64,000 bases of DNA from Corynebacterium sp. p3-SID1241 (lineage in GTDB: Bacteria > Actinomycetota > Actinomycetes > Mycobacteriales > Mycobacteriaceae), in NCBI GenBank assembly GCA_025144025.1, contig JALXWS010000008.1, positions 1 to 64,000 on the forward strand, written 5' to 3'. Below are positions 4,766 to 63,380 of the stretch, in pieces. Below the pieces are notes generated by a model. The model searched no databases. It saw only the letters and a program-made list of their open reading frames with translations, and was not told where the DNA came from. A program made the position numbers and the translations under genes. Each line of letters begins with the position of its first letter. The first letter of the stretch is position 1.

Positions 4766-5659
4766 ATGAATTTCGCGACCACCGGCGCCGGCCGATACGC
4801 GCCGAGCCCCTCGGGTGATCTGCACTTTGGCAACCTCCGCACGGCGCTTCTGGCGTGGCTTTGTGCCCGATCGACGGGGAGGCGCTTTGTGGTGCGCGTG
4901 GAGGACATCGATAAGCAGCGCTCCTCCCAAGTAGCGGCCGAGCGTCAGCTCGCGGACCTGCGCGCGCTCGGTCTGGACTGGGACGGCGAGGTCATCTACC
5001 AGCACGATCGCGACGCCGCCTATGAACAGGCCTTGGCCCAATTGCCCACTTACGAATGCTATTGCTCCCGCAAGGATATCCGTGAGGCCTCCCGCGCCCC
5101 ACATGCCATTCCCGGTCAGTACCCGGGTACCTGCCGCAACCTCACCGAAGAGCAGCGCGCGGCCAAGCGTGCCGAGCTTGCGGCCCACAACCGCAAGCCC
5201 GCCCTTCGCCTGCTTGCCGACGTCCCCACTTTCACCATCCACGACGCCCTCCACGGCACCTATACGGGCGACGTGGACGACTTTATCCTGCGCCGCGGCG
5301 GCCAGGATGCTGGATGGGCCTATAACTTGGCCGTCGTCGTCGACGATGCCTACCAAGACATCGACCAAGTGGTCCGCGGCGATGACCTGCTCTCCTCCGC
5401 GCCGCGGCAGGCCTACCTCGCCTCGCTGCTTGGCATCGAACCGCCGGAGTATATCCATGTCCCGCTCGTACTCAATGAATCCGGCGAGCGCCTGGCCAAG
5501 CGCGATGGCGCGGTGACGCTGCGGGAGATGGGGGATGAGGGGGACGTCGTCAAGCAGCTGGCGGCCTCGCTGGGGTACAAGGCCGCCAGTGCCACCGAGC
5601 TGCTCGCGCAATTCGAACCCGACCGGTTAAGCCCTGAGCCCTATACCTGGCGCGGGTAA
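4766..5659 (+). CDS. gluQ: Glutamyl-Q tRNA(Asp) synthetase
   Basis: A 297-residue truncated glutamyl-tRNA synthetase without an anticodon-binding domain, the hallmark of GluQ-RS. That enzyme attaches glutamate to the queuine base at position 34 of tRNA-Asp. The class I signature is GRYAPSPSGDLHFGNLRTAL at the N-terminus. A zinc site is suggested by YECYCSRKD near residue 97 plus a cysteine in YPGTCRNL. The KMSKS-equivalent RLAKRDGAVTL lies near 244. I chose ATG 4766 over GTG 4760 because TAGACT at 4754-4759 leaves six bases to this ATG, a leaderless arrangement. It acts on the product of the neighbouring tgt. It contains one exact copy (5212) and one near copy (5540) of the window's repeated 16-mer. 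Confidence 0.93.
   Translation: MNFATTGAGRYAPSPSGDLHFGNLRTALLAWLCARSTGRRFVVRVEDIDKQRSSQVAAERQLADLRALGLDWDGEVIYQHDRDAAYEQALAQLPTYECYCSRKDIREASRAPHAIPGQYPGTCRNLTEEQRAAKRAELAAHNRKPALRLLADVPTFTIHDALHGTYTGDVDDFILRRGGQDAGWAYNLAVVVDDAYQDIDQVVRGDDLLSSAPRQAYLASLLGIEPPEYIHVPLVLNESGERLAKRDGAVTLREMGDEGDVVKQLAASLGYKAASATELLAQFEPDRLSPEPYTWRG
5212..5227 (-). repeat. Exact copy of 16-mer GGGGRCGTCGGCAAGC (R=A)
   Basis: It lies inside gluQ, antisense to the gene, where it encodes LADVP. It is one of seven exact copies in the window. Confidence 0.8.
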
Positions 5660-5670
5660 AATCTCAGCCC

Positions 5671-61580: not shown

Positions 61581-62192
61581 ATGAACGATTTTCTTGCCCG
61601 CACCCAGGAAGGCGCCTCGGCCCTGTGCCGCGCCGCCACCGATATCAGCGCGCGGCCGCAGCTTTTAGCCTCGGTTCGTGAAGAGCCCGCCGTTGGCGCC
61701 GGAGTCCTAGCCGCAGCTATTGGCCAGGTGGAAAAGGTACGCACCCTGACCCGTCCTTCGGTGCACGGCGTGGCGGCCGTAACGGCGAACCACGCTGCCT
61801 ATGCGTGGAGCCTATATCGCCGCGGCGCGCGCAATGATGCCCTGGGCTGGGGCCTGCGCGCGGCCGTATGGGGCGCGGGCGTTGCCGCGACTCGCAAGGA
61901 GCCGACGGCCGCAGCCGTGGCGGTGGGCGGCGCGGCCGTGCTCAGCACCTCTGCGTTGGCGGGGGATCCGGCGCTGCGCACTGACGCCGGCAAGGGCATC
62001 AGCCACGGCGCTAACTTGCTGGTCGCGGCTGAGGGGCTGACGGCCCTGCGCGCGGAGCTCGCCCAGCGAAAGTGCGGAACGCGGAAGCACGCGGTGAAAA
62101 AGCAAGGGGCGCGTCTGGTGGGCGCGGCCGAGGCGGGTGCCCTAGCGGTCGGCCATCTGCTGCTTCTCGATGGCCTGCGCCGCACCCGATAA
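61581..62192 (+). CDS. Alanine-rich hypothetical membrane-associated protein
   Basis: A 203-residue protein that I do not recognise. It has several short moderately hydrophobic Ala/Gly-rich stretches (VGAGVLAAAIGQVE, LRAAVWGAGVAATRK, AAAVAVGGAAVLSTSALAG, AGALAVGHLLLL) that could be weak membrane segments. TAAGGT at 61568-61573 lies exactly seven bases before ATG 61581, so I prefer this start to GTG 61572. Its last 51 bases overlap the convergent DUF418 gene. Confidence 0.7.
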   Translation: MNDFLARTQEGASALCRAATDISARPQLLASVREEPAVGAGVLAAAIGQVEKVRTLTRPSVHGVAAVTANHAAYAWSLYRRGARNDALGWGLRAAVWGAGVAATRKEPTAAAVAVGGAAVLSTSALAGDPALRTDAGKGISHGANLLVAAEGLTALRAELAQRKCGTRKHAVKKQGARLVGAAEAGALAVGHLLLLDGLRRTR

Positions 62193-63380
62193 CTGCGGCT
62201 GCATCGTCGGGCCGTAGGACAGGCGGCGGTGCACGGCCTCAAAAGGTCCGCGGCGGTCGAAGGCTTCCAGCACGCAGGCGAAGATGAGCGTGACCAGCCA
62301 CACCGCGAATGCCAGCGCGGCTTGGCCAAAGGCGCCCAGTTCGTGGCCGAAGTTCAGCGTAAACGGGTGCACGAGGCAGAAAAAGAGGAGGCACTGGCCC
62401 ACGTAGCCGCTCATGGAGCGCTTACCCAGCGCCGCAAAGGGCCACAGCACCGCGGGCAGCGGCGCACCGGCCGAGAGCCGCTCCTGTACCGGCTGCAACA
62501 CCAGCGCGAGCCCGGCCAGGATGCCGGGGCCGGTAAAGACGCCGATGAAGGAGTTGGCATTATTGGCCGCATTCGCCCAGCGCTGCTCGATGACCCCAAG
62601 CGTGCTCAAAGACCACAAGGTACCGATAACCACGGTAATGACCACCGCGACGGCGACCCAGCGCAGGAGGGTGGGGCGGTGAGAGGGGACGTCGGCAAGC
62701 ACGCCTTGGCGCGCCCACACAAAGCCCACCAGCATGACGGGCAGGTACATCAATAAAATGATCGGCGTGGCCAAGGCCTGGCTGCCTAGGGTGACTAGCT
62801 GGCTGAGCAGCAAATCGGGGTAGGAATCGATGGTGCCGATGCCTTCCGTAGCCACCACGCCGAGGGGATCCATAGCGCCGGAAATGAAGGCCACGATCCC
62901 GCCCAGCGCGCACAGTGCGAACAGAATATAGGCCACGCGCATAAGGGTAGAATCCCGCTTGCGCAGCAGGAATGCAATCACGATTCCGGCCGCGCCATAG
63001 AAGAACATGATGTCGCCCCAAAACAGCAGCGTCATGTGCACCGCACCCATCACTGCTAAGAAGGCATAGCGCTTGGCGATGACCCTGCGCGCCGCCTGCA
63101 CCGGAAACCCACGCCGCCACAGGCTCAGCGCAATGAGCCCCACGCCAAAGCCGAGCAGGGTGGAGAACATGGGCAGGCCGCGGTTGTGGACAAAGAAGGC
63201 GCCGAAGACGACGGCCGCCTTATCCCACGCGCTGCCGTCGATGATGCCGCCGAAATAGCTGCCTGGCCGGTCGGTGGTAATAATCCACGCCGTGGTCATA
63301 TTGGCCATGGCGATGCCTAGGAGGGCCATGCCGCGCGCCACATCGGGCACGATCATGCGGGGCCGAGAAGCTGAGCTCAC
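62142..63380 (-). CDS. DUF418 domain membrane protein
   Basis: A 412-residue protein with about ten membrane helices. It starts IVPDVARGMALLGIAMANM (the 'D-x-x-RG-x-A-L-x-GI-x-x-x-N' signature) and ends in the DUF418 region (LAALGKRSMSGYVGQCLLFFCLVHPF), like acyltransferase-3-related proteins. Function unknown. It begins 12 bases after the stop of the adenylate cyclase gene on the same strand, so the two are likely cotranscribed. An exact 16-mer copy lies at 62685, read as LADVP. Confidence 0.85.
   Translation of the reverse strand: MSSASRPRMIVPDVARGMALLGIAMANMTTAWIITTDRPGSYFGGIIDGSAWDKAAVVFGAFFVHNRGLPMFSTLLGFGVGLIALSLWRRGFPVQAARRVIAKRYAFLAVMGAVHMTLLFWGDIMFFYGAAGIVIAFLLRKRDSTLMRVAYILFALCALGGIVAFISGAMDPLGVVATEGIGTIDSYPDLLLSQLVTLGSQALATPIILLMYLPVMLVGFVWARQGVLADVPSHRPTLLRWVAVAVVITVVIGTLWSLSTLGVIEQRWANAANNANSFIGVFTGPGILAGLALVLQPVQERLSAGAPLPAVLWPFAALGKRSMSGYVGQCLLFFCLVHPFTLNFGHELGAFGQAALAFAVWLVTLIFACVLEAFDRRGPFEAVHRRLSYGPTMQPQLSGAAQAIEKQQMADR
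62685..62700 (+). repeat. Exact copy of 16-mer GGGGRCGTCGGCAAGC (R=A)
   Basis: Inside the DUF418 gene and antisense to it. Confidence 0.8.

What the first reader, a model, noticed from the sequence alone, without database searches (positions are those of the whole stretch)
5212..62700. Over-represented 16-mer GGGGRCGTCGGCAAGC scattered through genes on both strands
By eye, seven exact copies: 5212(-), 19225(+), 24399(+), 27747(-), 32968(+), 57123(-), 62685(+). Six more have one mismatch: 5540(+), 9869(+), 13849(+), 17472(-), 20662(+), 37268(-). Looser copies lie near 2844, 7387, 9496, 11706, 20778, 39184, 40727, 44013, 46734, 48720, 51061, 54281 and 55414. A given 16-mer is expected far less than once in 64 kb. 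The copies fall in unrelated genes and in different frames (LADVP/LADAP, GVGKL, KGASAS, CRRP), so protein conservation does not explain them. Both orientations are common (8 plus, 5 minus among the best), unlike a strand-biased FtsK-type signal. Such an intragenic, frame-free oligomer resembles uptake signal sequences, Chi sites, or a methylation/chromosome-organising site. I know of none described for Corynebacterium.
Basis: partly seen in the sequence, partly recalled or inferred. Interest (0 to 1): 0.82.

Follow-up and report, generated by a model that had tools for sequence, protein, structure and literature searches.

The report
Gram-positive DNA uptake tag with dialects
Most Corynebacterium species examined carry hundreds to nearly two thousand copies of one 11-base DNA tag (CGTCG, two free bases, AAGC; in some species CATCG instead of CGTCG) on both strands and mostly inside genes; it likely labels their DNA for uptake from the surroundings, a kind of label known from two families of Gram-negative bacteria and not found in our literature searches for any Gram-positive.

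Summary
The 16-mer is the best-fitting local form of an 11-base motif, CGTCG-NN-AAGC (here GNCGTCGNNAAGC). The window holds 39 copies (38 in called genes, where synonymous shuffling gives 3). The genome holds 812, reversed control 72. Of 201 Corynebacterium genomes, 140 hold 280-1,964 copies, strand-balanced; 140 genomes of 30 other genera show nothing comparable. There is no replichore bias in the one complete genome sampled, several reading frames are used, two prophages are almost free of it, and orthologous sites are conserved (33 of 35 against 43% for matched 11-mers). Eleven genomes use a second dialect, CATCGNNAAGC: between the window's clade and its sister clade 23 of 29 conserved sites have switched G to A in place. 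This resembles the uptake signals of Neisseriaceae and Pasteurellaceae. The window carries an Flp/Tad pilus locus of the kind needed for transformation in Micrococcus luteus; comEA/comEC lie elsewhere. Uptake itself is inferred: no receptor was found, motif-less species keep tad and comEC too, and, unlike DUS/USS, copies are not scarcer in genes. I put a transformation uptake signal at 0.6. If right, it is the first I could find for a Gram-positive.

The parts
1644..1654 (-). motif copy CGTCGACAAGC
2628..2638 (-). motif copy CGTCGAAAAGC
2846..2856 (+). motif copy CGTCGGCAAGC
5212..5222 (-). motif copy, exact 16-mer at 5212-5227
5545..5555 (+). motif copy CGTCGTCAAGC
7387..7397 (-). motif copy CGTCGGCAAGC
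8628..8638 (+). motif copy CGTCGAAAAGC
9496..9506 (-). motif copy CGTCGGCAAGC
9874..9884 (+). motif copy CGTCGGCAAGC
10705..10715 (-). motif copy CGTCGTCAAGC
11722..11732 (+). motif copy CGTCGGAAAGC
13257..13267 (-). motif copy CGTCGTAAAGC
13854..13864 (+). motif copy CGTCGGCAAGC
15482..15492 (+). motif copy CGTCGGGAAGC
16059..16069 (-). motif copy CGTCGATAAGC
16104..16114 (+). motif copy CGTCGGCAAGC
17472..17482 (-). motif copy CGTCGCCAAGC
19230..19240 (+). motif copy, exact 16-mer at 19225-19240
20667..20677 (+). motif copy CGTCGGCAAGC
20778..20788 (-). motif copy CGTCGCCAAGC
24404..24414 (+). motif copy, exact 16-mer at 24399-24414
26608..26618 (-). motif copy CGTCGTAAAGC, the one window copy without G at -2
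27747..27757 (-). motif copy, exact 16-mer at 27747-27762
31553..31563 (-). motif copy CGTCGTCAAGC
32973..32983 (+). motif copy, exact 16-mer at 32968-32983
33435..33445 (-). motif copy CGTCGTCAAGC
37751..37761 (+). motif copy CGTCGGAAAGC
40729..40739 (+). motif copy CGTCGCCAAGC
44015..44025 (+). motif copy CGTCGCCAAGC
45849..45859 (-). motif copy CGTCGCCAAGC
46736..46746 (+). motif copy CGTCGCCAAGC
50644..50654 (-). motif copy CGTCGATAAGC
51063..51073 (+). motif copy CGTCGCTAAGC
54285..54295 (+). motif copy CGTCGGTAAGC
55416..55426 (+). motif copy CGTCGGCAAGC
57123..57133 (-). motif copy, exact 16-mer at 57123-57138
60434..60444 (-). motif copy CGTCGATAAGC
61337..61347 (-). motif copy CGTCGGTAAGC
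62690..62700 (+). motif copy, exact 16-mer at 62685-62700
50165..51232 (+). Ssd/CpaE-like (TadZ-like) gene of the tad locus; predicted partner, not shown to act on the motif
   Evidence: TIGR03815
51262..52407 (+). TadA ATPase (open frame starts at 50899; the profile match starts near 51262)
   Evidence: TIGR03819
52331..53188 (+). TadB-like membrane protein (start uncertain)
   Evidence: T2SSF 22.1 bits, below the 25.2 cut-off
53185..53781 (+). TadC-like membrane protein (start read by eye)
   Evidence: T2SSF above cut-off; frame
53806..53994 (+). Flp pilin (DUF4244)
   Evidence: PF14029
54047..54364 (+). TadE-like minor pilin; no profile match, named by place and N-terminal helix
54357..54683 (+). 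TadE/G-like protein
   Evidence: PF13400

Best explanation
The 16-mer is the locally best-fitting form of a genus-wide, strand-symmetric 11-base tag, CGTCG-NN-AAGC (in other species CATCG-NN-AAGC), which likely works as a DNA uptake signal: free DNA carrying it would be preferentially bound and pulled in by the Flp/Tad competence pilus with ComEA and ComEC. Recombination of the imported pieces would then spread and maintain the tag by molecular drive. When the specificity of the (unknown) reader changes, drive would convert the existing sites in place, giving dialects. Shown here: the motif, its numbers, strand balance, lack of replichore bias in one genome, lack of comparable enrichment in other genera, conservation at orthologous sites, in-place dialect switch, near-absence from two prophages, and presence of tad, comEA and comEC genes. 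Inferred: that the cells take up DNA, that uptake prefers the tag, that the Tad pilus is the machine, and that drive rather than selection on each site maintains it.
For: Sharpness and number: window 39, own genome 812 (411 +, 401 -) against 72 for the reversed control; 140 of 201 genus genomes hold 280-1,964 copies (my count from the table), up to about one per 1.3-1.5 kb, near the roughly 1 kb mean spacing given for Haemophilus. Codon shuffle: 38 against 2.95 +/- 1.50 in the window, 201 against 15.2 +/- 3.9 in the sampled sixth of G099. No change of strand balance with GC skew in G099: 141 + and 126 - in 20 stretches. Several frames, both orientations. Conservation: 33 of 35 aligned window sites intact in G004 and 31 of 35 in G005, matched 11-mers 42.7% and 45.2% (P about 1e-10 for the first). 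Dialects: 11 of 201 genomes hold 625-1,337 CATCGNNAAGC copies; all of these but G143 have the CGTCG form near background. In-place switch: of 35 aligned window sites 29 keep the other eight core bases in G006 (22.6% for matched 11-mers), 23 of them with A at position 2; outside the motif CGTCG shows A there in 43 of 182 (Fisher P about 1e-8). Fewest CG/CA changes on the TadA tree: 4; well-supported branches alone force 3 for the CA label. Foreign DNA: 0 copies in 92 kb around a phage portal gene of G192 (46 expected), 1 in 40 kb in G016 (29 expected). Outside the genus: 140 genomes of 30 other genera, at most 2.6 times control (CGTCG form only). Machinery: ComEC 201 of 201, TadA 198 of 201, Flp 198 of 201. 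The window itself holds the tad locus; tad genes, comEA and comEC are needed for transformation in Micrococcus luteus (PMC4322843 and PMC8467076, passages read).
Against: tad, Flp and ComEC genes are as common in the motif-less species as in the motif-bearing ones, so machinery presence does not predict the motif; in the 12 motif-less com loci fetched, ComEA and ComEC were both found. No receptor was identified; my TadE glutamine idea failed. I found no paper reporting natural transformation or an uptake signal in Corynebacterium. DUS and USS are reported as scarcer in coding DNA (PMC7811141, passage); here 1 of 39 window copies and 66 of 267 G099 copies lie outside called genes, which leave 12% and 22% of the sequence uncalled, so no such scarcity. 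Close inverted pairs, common as terminators in Haemophilus, are rare: 8 within 60 bases among 267 sites of G099, 4 of each order. In more distant or smaller pairings the switch is less clear: 2 of 8 (L102/L101) and 2 of 5 (L067/L069) sites. Another sequence-specific genome-wide DNA-binding system could also yield dispersed, conserved, dialect-bearing sites. Window density is 1.8 times the genome mean without explanation.
Confidence: 0.6

Rival explanations
1. The motif is the binding site of an intracellular chromosome-organising or recombination protein (a nucleoid protein, or a Chi-like hot spot of a recombinase) that needs a site every 1.5-3 kb.
For: Dispersed, conserved sites on both strands; slightly more even spacing than random (gap CV 0.72 in the window, P 0.026; 0.86 in G099, P 0.04); near-absence from two prophages fits any host-evolved site; no scarcity in genes.
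Against: No replichore strand bias in G099, which Chi and FtsK-type signals usually show (recalled). Converting most conserved sites by the same single base would need selection on each site, whereas uptake drive needs none (modelling cited in PMC7811141, passages read). No candidate protein found.
Confidence: 0.22
2. The motif is a methylation or self-marking site: a motif-specific methyltransferase marks self DNA for uptake or against a nuclease, as reported (recalled, not looked up) for CtsM in Campylobacter; dialect CATCG could arise by deamination of a methylated C.
For: A D12 adenine methyltransferase with a DUF6996/6997/7226 partner lies beside comEC in the own genome and clade. CG to CA is the change expected from deamination.
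Against: That pair is missing from the comEC loci of G099, G149, G016, G020, G029 and G045, all motif-rich (only those loci were searched), and it occurs with both dialects. The other eight core bases stay conserved after the switch, so the CA form is maintained, not decayed. CG and CA clades interleave on the TadA tree.
Confidence: 0.12
3. Codon usage, protein motifs or mutation bias produce the oligomer without a function.
For: Two readings (xLxDx and xVxKx) make up most intragenic copies.
Against: Synonymous shuffles give 3 against 38; single-base and spacing variants are near background; the prophage of G016, of the same G+C as its host, has 1 copy in 40 kb (that of G192 has lower G+C than its flanks); conservation and in-place switch.
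Confidence: 0.01

Closest known systems
DNA uptake sequences (DUS) of Neisseriaceae, read by the minor pilin ComP
   Same: About 10-12 bases, thousands of copies, dialects differing by one or a few bases that follow the phylogeny, a genome with two dialects, family members without any (PMC3630211, passages read).
   Different: Different and gapped sequence; Gram-positive hosts; Flp/Tad instead of type IVa pili (recalled); receptor unknown; uptake untested; hardly any inverted pairs; not scarcer in genes.
Uptake signal sequences (USS) of Pasteurellaceae
   Same: Short core, about one per kb, evolve by point mutation, under-represented in newly acquired DNA (PMC7811141, passages read).
   Different: Unrelated sequence; here no frequent terminator pairs and no scarcity in genes; uptake untested.
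Flp/Tad-pilus-dependent transformation of Micrococcus luteus
   Different: The terms 'uptake sequence' and 'sequence-specific' do not occur in that paper's text; M. luteus uses two tad clusters.
Chi sites and FtsK-orienting sequences
   Same: Over-represented short oligomers within genes.
   Different: Those are skewed relative to replication (recalled); this one is not in the complete genome sampled.

Membership tests
DNA uptake signal (DUS/USS) | Short motif with hundreds to thousands of copies, far above background | tested here: met
DNA uptake signal (DUS/USS) | Both orientations equal, no replichore skew | tested here: met
   replichore test in one complete genome, 20 stretches
DNA uptake signal (DUS/USS) | Evolves by point mutation, not an inserted element | tested here: met
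   sites lie in ungapped alignment with relatives and differ by substitutions; gapped positions were set aside
DNA uptake signal (DUS/USS) | Dialects in related species | tested here: met
DNA uptake signal (DUS/USS) | Under-represented in newly acquired DNA | tested here: met
   two prophages, limits post hoc; a third genome with a weak portal match held 6 copies in 40 kb
DNA uptake signal (DUS/USS) | Tendency to be scarcer in coding sequences (a reported tendency, not a definition) | tested here: not met
   crude gene caller: 1 of 39 and 66 of 267 outside called genes, uncalled fraction 12% and 22%
DNA uptake signal (DUS/USS) | Under-represented in rRNA genes | not tested
   rRNA operons were not fetched
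DNA uptake signal (DUS/USS) | Host has a type IV filament plus ComEA/ComEC | tested here: met
   not discriminating, motif-less species have them too
DNA uptake signal (DUS/USS) | Sequence-specific receptor, such as ComP | tested here: inconclusive
   one TadE position compared with dialect; association failed in further genomes
DNA uptake signal (DUS/USS) | Tagged DNA is taken up or transforms preferentially | not testable with these tools
   bench test needed; this is the defining function, so membership is not claimed
Chi site | Orientation skew with replication | tested here: not met
   one genome
FtsK-orienting sequence (KOPS-like) | Strong strand bias towards the terminus | tested here: not met
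   141 + and 126 -, no change of sign with GC skew
Site of the R-M pair beside comEC | Methyltransferase present wherever the motif is | tested here: not met
   absent from six motif-rich comEC loci (10-kb loci only, rest of those genomes not searched)

The most novel reading that the evidence does not exclude
It would be the first uptake-signal system in a Gram-positive, evolved independently of those of Neisseriaceae and Pasteurellaceae, and would imply that natural transformation is widespread and ongoing across the genus.
Probability: 0.5. Interest if true: 0.95.

Novelty: new variant of a known kind. Interest (0 to 1): 0.86.

Why it matters
Uptake signals are described for two Gram-negative families (PMC5031613 and PMC7811141, passages read). 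A third, independent case in a large Gram-positive genus would show that self-tagged DNA exchange evolves repeatedly, would predict natural transformation in bacteria for which my searches found no report of it, and would give a natural experiment in specificity change: sister species whose sites differ at the same single base. It would also help to read gene flow between corynebacteria.

Tried and rejected
TadE as reader by one residue: in the first set, 9 of 11 CATCG genomes had Gln after AIGV[ED][YF] and none of the CGTCG genomes read there did. In the loci, CGTCG-type species also have Gln there (L115, L123, L129, L130), so I dropped it.

Presence of machinery as predictor: ComEC, TadA and Flp are near-universal in the genus. 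TadA is divergent in the main motif-less clade, but other motif-less lineages do not share this. ComEC frame length does not separate the classes.

A third core dialect in low-count genomes: none clear in 21 sets of 20-60 kb, nor beyond CATCG in the 13 low-count genomes first sampled. In two of the 21 sets the list of gapped k-mers was swamped by runs of N, so only single-base variants could be read there. CGTCGNNGAGC reached 19 in one high-G+C set; it is also raised at spacer length 5 and for other partner words, a codon-phase effect, though I did not shuffle codons there.

R-M pair beside comEC as general cause: rejected on six loci. Strand-biased signals: rejected in one genome. Inverted terminator pairs: rare. 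Phage BFK20 as foreign-DNA control: I expected its host clade to be motif-less, so its count (1 CGTCG form, 0 CATCG form) proves nothing; I used prophages inside motif-rich genomes instead.

Prophage limits are post hoc: I chose the portal genes first, then took the run of 4-kb bins without (or with one) motif around them; all bins are printed. The phage nature rests on the portal match in both and, for G192 only, on neighbouring frames read by eye.

The TadA tree is a quick one with 23 open forks of 60; labels of named loci rest on local counts in about 20 kb. Of the Corynebacterium loci I put 18 in it and left out near-copies, short ones and ambiguous ones (L096-L098, L100, L107, L110, L117, L119, L122, L124, L129).

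Literature: one search found 33 papers holding one of six motif strings and listed 20; those titles were unrelated, the other 13 I did not see. One search was a general one on uptake sequences.
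Full report
OBSERVATION. Up to three mismatches there are 42 matches against a shuffled mean of 3.91. The 16-mer occurs 54 times in the 2.44-Mb genome, 27 per strand, the reversed pattern 0 times. 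Its 11-base 3' part, CGTCGGCAAGC, occurs 264 times against 2 and is enriched in many of 201 Corynebacterium genomes.

THE REAL UNIT. Stretches of another species, G099, gave top k-mers of the forms CGTCGTCAAGC, CGTCGTAAAGC and CGTCGGCAAGC, that is CGTCG-NN-AAGC. In the window this form has 39 copies; each of the 27 single-base variants has 0-7, other spacer lengths 0-2, the reversed control 1. In 400 kb of G099 it has 267 copies, control 16, single-base variants 1-48. G at -2 is nearly fixed in the window's clade (97% of 138 sites) and in the CATCG sister clade (95% of 115) but not in G099 (43%) or G149 (46%), and 74% in G016 plus G020 (the pooled loci include orthologous copies). In the own genome 728 of 812 copies have it.

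NOT CODING, NOT COMPOSITION. Copies lie in genes in sense and antisense and in several frames; antisense xLxDx and sense xVxKx predominate (crude gene caller of my own). Synonymous shuffling within genes gives 2.95 +/- 1.50 against 38 in the window and 15.2 +/- 3.9 against 201 in G099. Outside called genes lie 1 of 39 and 66 of 267 copies, with 12% and 22% of the sequence uncalled, so copies are not scarcer in genes. Gaps between copies are a little more even than random.

DISTRIBUTION. Of 201 Corynebacterium genomes, 140 hold 280-1,964 copies with balanced strands and reversed controls of about 20-110. The other 61 hold 8-134 copies, most near control; the highest ratios among them are G129 (115 against 27) and G132 (116 against 42); ten of the 61 are CATCG-dialect genomes (counted by me from the table). 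Among 140 genomes of 30 other genera of the family, CGTCGNNAAGC stays at most 2.6 times control (G297), mostly at or below it. 51 tad loci of other genera hold 18 CGTCG and 17 CATCG forms in 935 kb, control 40. In G099 the 20 stretches hold 141 + and 126 - copies with no change where GC skew changes sign.

DIALECTS. Of 13 low-count genomes first sampled, three (G053, G006, G111) use CATCGNNAAGC. Genome-wide, 11 of 201 hold 625-1,337 copies of that form (G006, G053, G094, G105, G111, G138, G143, G144, G151, G153, G179); the next is G073 with 213, and several CGTCG genomes reach 100-159, the own 154. G143 is mixed (1,337 CATCG, 352 CGTCG). The window's genome groups with C. tuberculostearicum on the TadA tree. 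On that tree the fewest CG/CA changes are 4, CA lying only within one clade of 25 rows.

IN-PLACE SWITCH. I aligned the window with its orthologous stretches. In same-dialect species 33 of 35 (G004) and 31 of 35 (G005) aligned sites are intact, against 42.7% and 45.2% of composition-matched 11-mers; read from G004, 33 of 41 are intact in the window. In the CATCG species G006, 29 of 35 window sites keep the other eight core bases (matched 22.6%); 23 of these have A at position 2 and 6 keep G. CGTCG outside the motif shows A there in 43 of 182. From G006 to the window 28 of 38 keep the eight bases, 23 with G and 5 with A. G004 to G006: 28 of 35 (22 A, 6 G); back: 26 of 34 (22 G, 3 A by pattern); G005 to G006: 26 of 32 (20 A, 6 G). 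The first, smaller pairings gave CATCG at 9 of 11, 6 of 10, 8 of 10, 9 of 11, 2 of 5, 10 of 12 and, for the most distant pair L102/L101, 2 of 8 CGTCG sites. Pooled tests: 18 of 18, 9 of 10 and 20 of 21 sites kept in same-dialect pairs, 6 of 11 for the window and L102 (matched 33%), 15 of 20 and 15 of 18 across dialects (matched 21%).

FOREIGN DNA. Among 32 motif-bearing genomes searched for a phage portal gene, the own included, two had one above cut-off and one (G175) a weak one. Around the two, G192 has no copy in 23 consecutive 4-kb bins (46 expected) and G016 has one in 10 bins (29 expected), with copies resuming on both sides. G+C of the G016 stretch equals its flanks; that of G192 is lower. 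In G192 the bins hold terminase-, portal-, capsid- and tape-measure-like frames (my reading). The G175 stretch held 6 copies in 40 kb.

MACHINERY. The window carries Ssd, TadA, TadB- and TadC-like proteins, Flp (DUF4244), a TadE-like protein, a TadE/G-like protein and the linked DEAH helicase. ComEC was found in 201 of 201 genomes, TadA in 198, Flp in 198; comEA sits beside comEC in the own genome. In Micrococcus luteus tad genes (tadB only in part) and comEA/comEC are needed for transformation (PMC4322843, PMC8467076; passages). These genes do not separate motif-bearing from motif-less species.

COMPARISON. DUS and USS share number, density, dialects and scarcity in new DNA (PMC3630211, PMC5031613, PMC7811141; passages), but are reported as scarcer in coding DNA, which this motif is not. 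A 2017 scan for spaced motifs reported CRISPR-related pairs for three Corynebacterium species in the passages I saw, not this motif (PMC5217627). Searches showed no paper on an uptake signal in Corynebacterium; most subscription journals are not held.

VERDICT. The feature is real, genus-wide and maintained by sequence. The best mechanism is a transformation uptake signal (0.6). Which molecule reads it, and whether cells take up DNA, remain untested.

Noticed in passing
window 1-64000: The window has 39 motif copies where the rest of the genome predicts about 21 (Poisson P about 2e-4); regional density varies without explanation.
   Followed up: partly
L067:936-3111 (G000 C67): D12 adenine methyltransferase followed by a DUF6996/6997/7226 protein, probably a restriction-modification pair, next to holA-comEC-comEA; relatives in the comEC loci of G004, G006, G105, G153, G111 and G144.
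   Followed up: partly
L057-L058 (G133): A palindrome like ATGCACGTGCAT, 16 copies in 40 kb of a genome without the motif; kind unknown.
   Followed up: no
window 1-64000: GTTATCCACAG / CTGTGGATAAC over-represented (4 copies against 0.0 expected), resembling a DnaA box (recalled); seen in the k-mer table.
   Followed up: no
genome G143 (L082): Carries both dialects in large numbers (1,337 CATCG, 352 CGTCG), perhaps caught in a switch.
   Followed up: partly
genome G073: Weak CATCG excess (213) and no Flp pilin found: perhaps a lineage that lost the pilus and whose sites are decaying; draft assembly.
   Followed up: no
L240-L245 (G192): About 92 kb without a motif copy holds a prophage and two recombinase-like frames in L242, so it may be more than one element.
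   Followed up: no
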